Below, piece by piece: positions 40,274 to 48,677 of a DNA stretch of 64,000 nt. A program made the translations under genes and the position numbers. This stretch comes from Hyphomicrobiales bacterium (lineage in GTDB: Bacteria > Pseudomonadota > Alphaproteobacteria > Rhizobiales > Rhizobiaceae): positions 62,001-126,000 of the forward strand of contig UBMP01000004.1 in assembly GCA_900466575.1 (NCBI GenBank), given 5' to 3'. Every line of letters begins with the position of its first letter. Position 1 is the first letter of the stretch. The notes under the pieces were generated by a model. It had not been told where the DNA came from. It did not search any database and saw nothing but the letters and a program-made list of their open reading frames with translations.

Positions 40274-41149
40274 ATGCCAGCTGTCGCCCTGTCCGATATC
40301 CTGCTGACCGCGCTCGCGCCTCTCATCTGGGGAAGCACCTATATTGTCACAACGACATTTCTGCCTGGCCTTGATCCGCTCTTCGTTTCCGCACTGCGGG
40401 CCTTGCCCGCCGGCATTCTCTTGCTCGTCCTGACTCGCCAACTGCCGACAGGCATCTGGTGGCTCCGCGCGTTCATACTCGGTGCGCTCAATTTCTCGAT
40501 CTTCTGGTGGATGCTTTTCGTCACGGCCTATCGGCTGCCGGGCGGTGTGGCGGCGACGGTGGGCGCGGTGCAGCCCTTCATCATCGTCTTTCTGGCCCGC
40601 GCGCTTGTCGGCACGCCAATCCGCGCCGTCTCCGTTCTTGCTGCTCTCGGCGGGGCGCTGGGCGTCGCGATCCTGATCCTGAAGCCCGGCGCCGCGCTCG
40701 ATCCCCTGGGCGTCGCGGCCGGCCTTTTCGGCGCTCTCTCCATGGCCTTCGGCACGGTGCTGACGCGACGCTGGCAACCCCCGGTTCCGCTGCTCACCTT
40801 CACCGCATGGCAATTGAGCGCCGGCGGCATTCTCCTGCTGCCGGTCGTCTTCCTGCATGTTCATGATTTACTGTCGCTCACCCCCGCCAATCTCGGTGCA
40901 GTCGCCTATCTGAGCTTCATCGGCGCAGGGCTCACCTATGCGCTCTGGTTCCGCGGCATCGCGAAGCTCGACCCGAACCGCGTTTCGCAACTGGCCTTCT
41001 TAAGCCCCGTCGCAGCCGTCACACTTGGCCTGATCTTCCGCCACGAAATGCTGACGCCCTTCCAGTGGGCCGGCATGGCGCTGATCTTCTGCAGCATCAT
41101 GCTCGGCCAACGGGGAGGGCGCGCACCCGCTTCCGGGCGAGCGGCTTAA
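40274..41149 (+). CDS. EamA/DMT exporter, PecM-like
   Basis: A 291-residue protein with about ten TM helices. The beginning LLTALAPLIWGSTYIVTT and ALRALPAGILLLVLTR and the loop AYRLPGGVAATVGAVQP are close to the PecM branch of the DMT superfamily. In Dickeya PecM exports indigoidine; here the cargo is unknown. ATG 40274, 5 bases after ggagg, is used rather than ATG 40262. Divergent from the MarR gene with shared operators. Confidence 0.85.
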   Translation: MPAVALSDILLTALAPLIWGSTYIVTTTFLPGLDPLFVSALRALPAGILLLVLTRQLPTGIWWLRAFILGALNFSIFWWMLFVTAYRLPGGVAATVGAVQPFIIVFLARALVGTPIRAVSVLAALGGALGVAILILKPGAALDPLGVAAGLFGALSMAFGTVLTRRWQPPVPLLTFTAWQLSAGGILLLPVVFLHVHDLLSLTPANLGAVAYLSFIGAGLTYALWFRGIAKLDPNRVSQLAFLSPVAAVTLGLIFRHEMLTPFQWAGMALIFCSIMLGQRGGRAPASGRAA

Positions 41150-41218
41150 GCAGGCGCACTCGTCTCCGCTCGGAGCCACAGCGCCCCAGGCAGTTGCCTT
41201 TTGTCATCTTATGAGCTA

Positions 41219-41338
41219 GGTCGGCGGGTATCCGTATGGACCCGGTGCAATTCCGGGTGGCTCTTCTGGCCGCCGATCCGCCAGACAACACAGCAACGCA
41301 ACTCTCTCCCAGGAACCGGGTTTCGCCCGGCTCGTTGC
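41219..41338 (+). ncRNA. structured leader RNA upstream of the SulP gene (possible sul1-type motif)
   Basis: A 9-bp outer stem (GGTCGGCGG 41219-41227 with CCGCCGATC 41270-41278, one wobble) encloses a small hairpin (TCC-GTAT-GGA, 41231-41240) and a stronger one (CCCGG-TGCAATT side with CCGGG, 41241-41257). A second domain has GCAACG (41293-41298) pairing with CGTTGC (41333-41338) around the hairpin GAACCGGG-TTTCG-CCCGGCTC (41313-41333). It ends 24 bases before the SulP ATG. A cis-regulatory motif called sul1 has been described before sulfate-transporter genes in alphaproteobacteria; whether this is one needs a covariance-model search. Confidence 0.5.
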
Positions 41339-41362
41339 CTTCAACTGTGAAAAACCAAGCTC

Positions 41363-42850
41363 ATGACACTCCTATCAAACTACCGTCAGCAGTGGTTCTG
41401 CAACATTCGCGCCGACATCCTGTCGGGCATCGTGGTGGCGCTGGCCCTCATTCCCGAGGCCATCGGCTTCTCCGTCATTGCCGGCGTCGATCCCAAGGTC
41501 GGACTCTATGCATCCTTTGCAATTGCCTGCGTGGCAGCCTTCACGGGCGGTCGCCCCGGCATGATTTCGGCCGCGACCGCCGCGACCGCCGTCGTCATGG
41601 TGTCGCTGGTGAAGGAACATGGCCTGCAATATCTGTTCGCAGCCACGATCCTGATGGGTATTATCCAGATCCTGGCCGGGTTCCTGAAGCTCGGCCGCAT
41701 CATGCGCTTCGTCTCGCGCTCGGTCATCACCGGCTTCGTCAATGCGCTCGCCATTCTCATCTTCATGGCGCAGTTGCCGGAATTGATCGGCGTCCCGGTC
41801 GAAACCTATTTCATGATCGCGGCTGGCCTTGCCATCATCTATCTCTTTCCGATGCTGACGAAGGCGATCCCTTCGCCGCTGGTGGCCATTGCGGTACTGA
41901 CGCTTGTAGCCTGGTTCACCGGCATGCACTTGCGCACCGTCGGTGATCTCGGCGAACTGCCCTCGGCCCTGCCGAGCTTCGCGCTGCCGGACGTCCCGCT
42001 GACGCTGGAAACGCTGAAGATCATCCTGCCCTATTCGCTGACGCTCGCTGCCGTCGGGCTGCTCGAGTCGCTGCTGACGGCGCAGATCGTCGACGACATG
42101 ACCGACACGCCCAGCAACAAGAGCCAGGAATGCATCGGGCAGGGCGCCGGCAACATCGCCTCGGCGCTGATCGGCGGCATGGGCGGTTGCGCGATGATCG
42201 GCCAGTCCGTCATCAACGTGACCTCGGGCGGGCGCGGGCGCCTCTCGACATTCGTCGCCGGCGCGTTTCTCCTGTTCCTGATCGTCGTACTGTCCGATCT
42301 CGTGCGCATCATTCCGATGGCCGCACTGGTCGCCGTCATGATCATGGTCTCGATCGGCACGTTTTCATGGAAGTCGATCATCGACCTGCGCCGCAATCCG
42401 CTACCGTCTTCGGTGGTCATGCTGGCCACGGTCGTAACGGTGGTTGCCACGCATGATCTTGCCAAGGGCGTGCTGGTCGGCGTGCTGCTGTCCGGCATCT
42501 TCTTCGCCGGCAAGGTCGCGAAGCTCTTTCGTGTGGTACGACACGAAGCAGGCGAAGACGGCGCCGTTCGCTATGACGTCAGCGGCCAGGTCTTCTTCGC
42601 GTCCGCCGAAGCCTTCATCCATGCCTTCGACTTCAGCGAGGCGACCCGACAGGTGACGATCGACCTGCACACCGCGCATCTTTGGGACATCACCGCCATC
42701 GGCGCATTGGACAAGGTTGTCATGCGTTTCCGCGCCAATGGCGTCGATGTGGACCTGGTGGGCTTCAATGAAGCCAGCGCCGACATGGTCGACCGCTTCG
42801 CGCTCCACGACAAGGAACAACGCCTCGCCGGCGCGGCCTCATTGCACTGA
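41363..42850 (+). CDS. SulP-family anion transporter with STAS domain
   Basis: A 495-residue transporter. The membrane part (about 1-390) has the SulP signature region [19 protein letters not shown] and [22 protein letters not shown]-terminal STAS domain (about 405-485) contains [17 protein letters not shown] and [19 protein letters not shown]. SulP proteins carry sulfate, bicarbonate, oxalate or other anions; the cargo is uncertain. The SD is weak, and a structured leader directly precedes the gene, so translation may be controlled through it. Confidence 0.93.
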
Positions 42851-48586: not shown

Positions 48587-48677
48587 TGGCGGAGAGGAAG
48601 GGATTCGAACCCTCGATACCCTTTTGAGGTATACTCCCTTAGCAGGGGAGCGCCTTCGACCACTCGGCCACCTCTCC
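48587..48677 (-). tRNA. tRNA-Ser (GCU)
   Basis: The minus strand reads GGAGAGGTGGCCGAGTGG at the 5' end, an anticodon stem-loop CTCCC-CTGCTAA-GGGAG with anticodon GCT, a long variable arm (class II), TTCGAATCC in the T-loop, and an acceptor stem closing with a genomic CCA at 48587-48589. Confidence 0.97.

What the first reader, a model, noticed from the sequence alone, without database searches (positions are those of the whole stretch)
41219..41338. Structured leader RNA before the SulP transporter gene
The 120 bases upstream of the SulP gene fold into two domains: a 9-bp stem enclosing two hairpins, and a second one with a 6-bp closing stem and a long GC hairpin. The SulP ATG has no good SD, so the RNA could gate translation or transcription. 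A motif named sul1, upstream of sulfate transporters in alphaproteobacteria, is known in the literature; no cobalamin core was found.
Basis: partly seen in the sequence, partly recalled or inferred. Interest (0 to 1): 0.72.

Follow-up and report, generated by a model that had tools for sequence, protein, structure and literature searches.

The report
sul1 RNA heading an anion-transporter mRNA
The leader before this transporter gene is a member of the known sul1 RNA family, probably a small RNA switch at the very start of the message, and its relatives suggest that it controls more than the sulfate uptake it was named for.

Summary
The leader is real and is a sul1 RNA: Rfam RF03058 matches window 41235-41290 at 76.2 bits (cut-off 36.2). 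The fold differs from the finding: two hairpins side by side (P1, P2), backed by covariation in 110 elements. The 9-bp enclosing stem overlaps the presumed promoter and is not conserved. A third arm is supported: in 214 SulP leaders the bases just after sul1 pair with the region before the start codon far better than with permuted partners (z -7 to -14; other genes -0.5). This points to control of translation; coupling to sul1 is not shown. The transporter is closest to SLC26Dg, a fumarate symporter, so 'sulfate' is unproven. With three chance matches dropped, 20 of 320 distinct elements lack a recognisable SulP; 16 of these precede genes mostly of surface-polysaccharide type. sul1 also occurs in Beta- and Gammaproteobacteria. 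Ligand and switching remain untested. The window element is a new member of a known kind; the second gene class and the arm extend the family.

The parts
41194..41199 (+). presumed -35 hexamer (TTGCCT)
   Evidence: TTG(A/C/T) is concentrated at -42 to -38 from the element start in 149 distinct loci; in this window inferred by position only, a strict sigma-70 scan found nothing
41216..41221 (+). presumed -10 hexamer (CTAGGT); start of transcription expected near 41228-41230
   Evidence: TA-containing motifs peak at -19 to -15 in 149 loci; spacing 16 nt here; start site not measured
41235..41290 (+). sul1 RNA element (RF03058)
   Evidence: 76.2 bits, cut-off 36.2; own model R1, which includes this copy, 77.1 bits
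41240..41258 (+). P1 hairpin: 41240-41245 pairs with 41253-41258
   Evidence: 5 of 6 pairs with changes on both sides across 110 elements
41259..41264 (+). junction GGCUCU (GGCU invariant in the 110-element alignment)
   Evidence: L135, not in that alignment, has GUCU
41265..41285 (+). P2 hairpin: 41265-41270 pairs with 41280-41285; loop CGCCGAUCC
   Evidence: 4 of 6 pairs with changes on both sides, e.g. C-G to G-C in 32 of 110 at the loop-closing pair
41289..41349 (+). P4: 41289-41293 (CACAG) pairs with 41345-41349 (CUGUG), -18 to -14 from the ATG
   Evidence: consensus fold of 13 leaders; single-sequence z -2.19, 10 of 200 shuffles as good; family-wide pairing of the two regions
41298..41338 (+).
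   Evidence: leaders chosen for GCAAC/GUUGC
41363..42850 (+). SulP/SLC26 transporter gene, 495 aa, ATG 72 nt after sul1
   Evidence: PF00916 and PF01740; nearest solved structure 5DA0 = SLC26Dg, 606 bits

Best explanation
The element is a sul1 RNA at the extreme 5' end of the SulP mRNA. It works in cis on its own message, most likely at the level of translation: two short hairpins (P1, P2) form a compact recognition domain, and directly after it a third arm pairs the bases following sul1 with the region 11-25 nt before the start codon. Binding of a signal (small molecule or ion, identity unknown) to P1/P2 would shift the stability of the abutting arm and so ribosome access. Shown: family membership, P1/P2, and the start-proximal arm by sequence covariation. 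Inferred: transcription start, ligand, coupling, direction of the switch.
For: RF03058 match; 98.0% of cells paired, 9 of 12 pairs with double changes, 0 of 500 shuffles as good, same 12 pairs predicted independently. Promoter-like peaks place sul1 about 5 nt after the presumed start. SulP start a median 69 nt after sul1 in 254 leaders. The post-sul1 segment pairs with its own ribosome-binding region: -10.30 against -7.29 kcal/mol permuted in 214 leaders; with one leader per cluster (142, 79 and 25 clusters) z -14.3, -10.3, -7.0, 0 of 3000 permutations each; control of 214 other genes z -0.5. In the window's family sul1 occurs in 69 of 74 genomes with the closer SulP (at least 56% identity), 0 of 18 with only the more distant one.
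Against: No segment of sul1 itself is complementary to the ribosome-binding region beyond chance. In the full transcript the linking pairs fall from 7.32 to 4.56 on average and exceed 3 in 53% of leaders; in 120 full transcripts the P1 and P2 pairs have mean probabilities of only 0.54 and 0.43. P1+P2 and the arm can form together, so no mutually exclusive switch is visible. In 12 non-SulP leaders the linking helix is not significant (-9.54 against -8.61, sd 0.75; starts uncertain). The 13-leader alignment alone gives weak covariation (2 of 14 pairs with double changes, reached by 105 of 500 shuffles). No expression or binding data. A strict promoter scan of the window found none.
Confidence: 0.6

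Rival explanations
1. sul1 is the landing site of an RNA-binding protein rather than a ligand-binding RNA; the protein represses or protects the message.
For: Small size (56 nt), two simple hairpins with a nearly invariant loop (CGCCNAUCC) and an invariant junction (GGCU). Two diverged copies precede NYN-domain genes; that NYN is an RNase-like fold is recalled.
Against: No protein gene other than SulP was seen to accompany sul1 consistently: 295 of 323 distinct copies precede SulP, also in Beta- and Gammaproteobacteria (L179, L210). A protein encoded elsewhere is not excluded.
Confidence: 0.22
2. sul1 is a constitutive 5' stabiliser or translation-setting leader without a signal.
For: Position at the presumed 5' end; structure can co-form with the downstream arm.
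Against: Loop and junction bases that no pairing explains are invariant or nearly so in 110 elements, more than a stabiliser should need. One copy before a SulP remnant has a broken outer P1 pair (L170), but another before a cut-short SulP looks sound (L338:8427-8482, 67.1 bits), so decay with the gene is not established.
Confidence: 0.12
3. The leader controls transcription by attenuation.
For: A GC hairpin lies between sul1 and the gene.
Against: No terminator-like site in the window; U-runs of 5 or more in only 31 of 254 leaders. Rho-dependent control was not tested.
Confidence: 0.05
4. The conserved stretch is a small overlapping gene (AUG at 41236 opens a 236-aa frame).
For: Open frame in this window.
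Against: The AUG is not conserved: A in 70 and T in 56 of 149 at its first two positions; the P1 length differs from the commonest in 124 of 323 copies; changes follow base pairs.
Confidence: 0.01

Closest known systems
sul1 RNA, Rfam RF03058 (typed Cis-reg; riboswitch)
   Same: Full-length match 1-56, P1 and P2, SulP gene downstream
   Different: Nothing in the core; the start-proximal arm and the non-SulP gene class are not part of the 56-position model. The original description (Weinberg et al. 2017, recalled) is not held and was not read, so it may already mention either.
Translational riboswitches with a ribosome-binding arm next to the aptamer (recalled)
   Same: Conserved core followed by a variable arm that pairs near the start codon
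   Different: Ligand unknown; no mutually exclusive state seen; no SD
SLC26Dg, Deinococcus geothermalis (5DA0), for the gene
   Same: 606 bits over residues 4-488; 5DA0 is SLC26Dg (PMC6497670, passages)
   Different: Fumarate transport was measured for SLC26Dg, not for this protein; whether D. geothermalis has a sul1 was not searched

Membership tests
sul1 (RF03058) | covariance-model score over the curated cut-off | tested here: met
   76.2 against 36.2 bits
sul1 (RF03058) | two consecutive hairpins with covariation | tested here: met
   single-sequence fold of 41235-41290 gives both
sul1 (RF03058) | upstream of a SulP gene | tested here: met
   SulP ATG 72 nt downstream
riboswitch | direct, specific binding of a small ligand | not testable with these tools
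   needs in-line probing or equilibrium binding
riboswitch | expression platform coupled to the aptamer | tested here: inconclusive
   start-proximal arm supported, coupling not shown
sulfate permease (TIGR00815) | score over the curated cut-off | tested here: not met
   295.6 against 380.45 bits; the broader PF00916 and STAS cut-offs are met

The most novel reading that the evidence does not exclude
sul1 is not a sulfate sensor but the shared control of a small regulon that links an SLC26Dg-type organic-anion transporter with enzymes that decorate or build surface polysaccharide, acting through a start-proximal arm; its ligand would be a metabolite common to both, such as a C4-dicarboxylate or an acyl/sulfuryl donor.
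Probability: 0.3. Interest if true: 0.7.

Novelty: new member of a known kind. Interest (0 to 1): 0.43.

Why it matters
sul1 is an orphan as far as the held library shows. Searches for the RNA (also 84 and 87 for orphan or candidate riboswitches with sulfate transporters or SulP) led to four papers whose sul1 passages I saw: two data-set lists or counts (PMC7371854; PMC9943018), one that relabels sul1 among speculative riboswitches as ligand 'unknown' (PMC12021280), and one passing mention under another accession (PMC10636060). None names a ligand. Two facts here give handles: the controlled transporter belongs with a fumarate symporter, and a minority of copies, in several lineages, head surface-polysaccharide genes. 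Both change which ligands should be tried first. Laboratory strains carrying sul1 exist (Sinorhizobium meliloti 1021; Cereibacter sphaeroides 2.4.1), so the question is directly testable.

Tried and rejected
Direct sequestration of a Shine-Dalgarno by the P2 loop, junction or tail: no excess complementarity in 220-221 leaders. Terminator: none in the window, few U-runs elsewhere. Small gene at 41236: start not conserved. Pseudoknots GGC/GCC (junction with P2 loop) and GG/CC (5' end with P2 loop): possible, but the bases are invariant or nearly so, so covariation cannot test them. sul1 in phage records: no match at E 0.01. Three of 23 regex elements without SulP (L234:3138, L381:5618, L382:1237) were chance matches: not found by model R1. 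The regex also missed six copies that R1 finds (L135, L149, L189, L223, L239, L379); they are not in the 323. Three hits of the genome searches lie below Rfam's cut-off (L008, L009, L128) and have no SulP; left out of the structure counts. 20 of 320 is not a population frequency: genomes with several copies were fetched on purpose. Base rate: Acyl_transf_3 gave 4 to 10 matches per genome (fragments included) in seven genomes with non-SulP copies (two further such genomes, G806 and G821, were not scanned), yet heads 5 of 20 non-SulP copies; gene totals were not counted.

Full report
WHAT IS THERE. Rfam's sul1 model (RF03058, typed Cis-reg; riboswitch) matches window 41235-41290 on the + strand over its full length with 76.2 bits (cut-off 36.2, E 4.2e-12 for the window). 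A permissive scan of 40900-41500 gave seven other matches, all below their cut-offs. The genome search found one sul1 and three genes with Pfam's Sulfate_transp domain, one of them behind sul1. The gene downstream, 41363-42850, has Sulfate_transp and STAS domains.

STRUCTURE. A script found 323 distinct copies (distinct in element plus 30 nt on each side) in 388 loci and the window and grouped their sequences into 137 representatives, of which 110 were printed. I aligned 109 of these 110 (one chance match, L234:3138, dropped) plus the window's own copy. P1 and P2 are paired in 98.0% of cells; 9 of 12 pairs show changes on both sides (103 cells); none of 500 shuffles reached the observed values, and sliding the partner by one to three bases drops pairing to 56.2% or less. 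RNAalifold, without being told, predicts the same 12 pairs. GG at positions 4-5, U24, GGCU and most of the loop CGCCNAUCC are invariant or nearly so.

The 120 nt given in the finding fold no better than shuffles (z -0.74). The 9-bp outer stem appears only when 41219-41234 is included; the 56-nt element alone folds as P1+P2. Across 169 distinct elements the upstream bases show no excess pairing with P2; of the 14 loci printed (the window's copy and 13 kin) only L032 shares the strong stem. The same bases lie where a promoter is expected: in 149 distinct loci TTG(A/C/T) clusters at -42 to -38 and TA-containing motifs at -19 to -15 from the element start. In the window this gives TTGCCT (41194-41199), 16 nt, CTAGGT (41216-41221); a strict consensus scan did not accept it. 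The start of transcription, and so the claim that sul1 opens the message, is an inference.

THE ARM TO THE START CODON. In 254 SulP leaders where I could place the start, it lies a median 69 nt after sul1 (5-95%: 59-103). The stretch from sul1 to the start folds slightly better than shuffled (mean z -0.80, 140 leaders). I asked whether the last 5 nt of sul1 and the next 12 pair with the last 30 nt before the ATG, in 214 non-redundant leaders: 7.32 expected pairs against 3.61 in shuffles. Own partners bind with -10.30 kcal/mol, permuted ones with -7.29 (sd 0.16). With one leader per cluster at 65, 58 and 52% identity (142, 79, 25 clusters) z is -14.3, -10.3 and -7.0, with 0 of 3000 permutations as good; upstream regions of 214 other genes give z -0.5. 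A first, looser clustering gave only 11 groups, 9 of them with the own partner better. Pairing begins at tail position 4 and peaks at -24/-23 and -14 to -12 from the ATG. In the window this is P4 (41289-41293 with 41345-41349) and P3 (41298-41302 with 41334-41338) around a GC hairpin. The same arm is predicted for 13 distinct leaders of related species, but these were selected for GCAAC and GUUGC, so P3 is no independent evidence there, and the tool counts only two pairs with double changes. By eye, L037 (CACAU/AUGUG) and L094 (CACUG/CAGUG) carry compensated P4 helices; L094 is misaligned in A2. Against a simple switch: sul1 and the arm can form together, linking pairs fall to 4.56 in the full transcript, P1 and P2 pairs have mean probabilities of 0.54 and 0.43 there (120 leaders), and no part of sul1 is complementary to the ribosome-binding region beyond chance.

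WHICH GENE IT CONTROLS. The window's family is unnamed in the tool; named kin are Rhizobiaceae (inferred). In it, sul1 was found in 69 of 74 genomes with a SulP of at least 56% identity and in 0 of 18 with only a 47-49% relative (genome lists compared). That sul1 sits directly before SulP comes (144 of 153 loci). The five exceptions have no sul1 in the fetched 1 kb, nor do 8 of the 18 others (one chance match of 7.6 bits). The protein's nearest solved relative is 5DA0, SLC26Dg (606 bits; 7LHV, AtSULTR4;1, 102; 6KI1, BicA by recall, 130), described as an H+-coupled fumarate transporter (passages of PMC6497670, PMC7329351, PMC8298490). It misses NCBI's cut-offs for sulfate permease, DauA and BicA. 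The substrate is therefore open, and fumarate or a related dicarboxylate is as good a guess as sulfate.

A SECOND GENE CLASS. Of the 323 copies, 295 have a SulP frame within 500 nt (one of them cut short, L338; 11 more run off the end of the DNA held), 5 have too little DNA, 23 have none; 3 of the 23 were chance matches. The other 20: five Acyl_transf_3 genes (L163, L297, L300, L341, L377), two glycosyltransferase genes (L293, family 8, followed by polysaccharide pyruvyl transferase; L381, group 1/4), a Polysacc_synt_3 flippase (L338), a Sulfotransfer_3 gene (L166), a protein without Pfam match twice (L164; L165, there followed by MBOAT), a hexapeptide-repeat protein heading an operon three times (L346, L380, L376; then a small protein that looks like an acyl carrier protein to me though Pfam found nothing, a dehydrogenase and, in L376, an AMP-binding enzyme), two methyltransferases (L343, L336), two NYN-domain genes (L293, L303), one unclear (L337) and one SulP remnant (L170). 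The first seven kinds make the 16; the methyltransferases and the Pfam-less proteins are the least certain to concern polysaccharide. Rfam's own model confirms all 20 above its cut-off (L338's copy). Named hosts are Paracoccus, Cereibacter, Roseibium (NYN only), Lichenicoccus, Inquilinus and Alsobacter; others are unnamed (genus g417 and two genomes, G882 and G922, of the family of a Paracoccus genome). In the hexapeptide operon sul1 is kept between L346/L380 and L376 although the leader behind it differs; a 57%-identical relative in G993 had no sul1 match. Caution: most gene starts are from a simple caller of mine, L346 and L380 are close kin, and the sample is biased towards genomes with several copies. 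The start-proximal arm is not significant in this class (12 leaders).

DISTRIBUTION. Genomes with a match: 9 of 289 (7 over cut-off) across the class, 89 of 199 in the window's family, 51 of 297 in the order, 7 of 20 in one further family, 31 of 248 in the family of a Paracoccus genome; scans over 40 genomes use stricter filters, so these are lower bounds. A pattern scan of named genomes stopped at its limit with 119 loci, 113 with SulP directly downstream; three of the other six end too soon (L189, L192, L273). They include Achromobacter, Eoetvoesiella and another Alcaligenaceae strain, and Rhodanobacter glycinis; L179 and L210 pass Rfam's cut-off. Plasmid records: 142 with a match; none in phages.

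VERDICT. The window element is an ordinary, well-formed member of a known orphan RNA family. What is new to me, and not found in the searches named in this report, is the covarying arm to the start codon, the gene class outside SulP, and the SLC26Dg kinship of the main target; the original description could not be read. Control of translation is the best-supported reading; ligand and mechanism are not shown.

Noticed in passing
L294-L296, L298, L303, L342, L345, L347: In Rhodobacterales and Roseibium the sul1-linked SulP is often followed by a universal-stress-protein gene; on one Agrobacterium plasmid it sits between arsenic genes and TauE/SafE, rhodanese and chromate genes (L301).
   Followed up: partly
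L293:1712-1770 and L303:7723-7771: Two diverged sul1 copies (42 bits) head NYN-domain genes close to a SulP gene that has its own sul1.
   Followed up: partly
L239:259-303: A sul1 whose P1 has lost its apex (no loop left in the model alignment) before a SulP frame of 649 bits; natural variant or assembly fault.
   Followed up: no
L226: sul1 plus SulP in an assembly labelled Solirubrobacterales; possibly misassigned alphaproteobacterial DNA.
   Followed up: no
L170:9540-9595: sul1 before a SulP reduced to its first codons; the element carries a mismatch at the outer P1 pair.
   Followed up: partly
L379:5394-5451: sul1 copy with no + strand gene called behind it and two P2 pairs broken.
   Followed up: no
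window 48590-48677, - strand: tRNA gene, the only other RNA family over its cut-off in the window.
   Followed up: no
L290:6001-6053: Sinorhizobium meliloti 1021 carries sul1 on pSymB (record 79424-79476, - strand) before SulP; useful for bench tests.
   Followed up: partly
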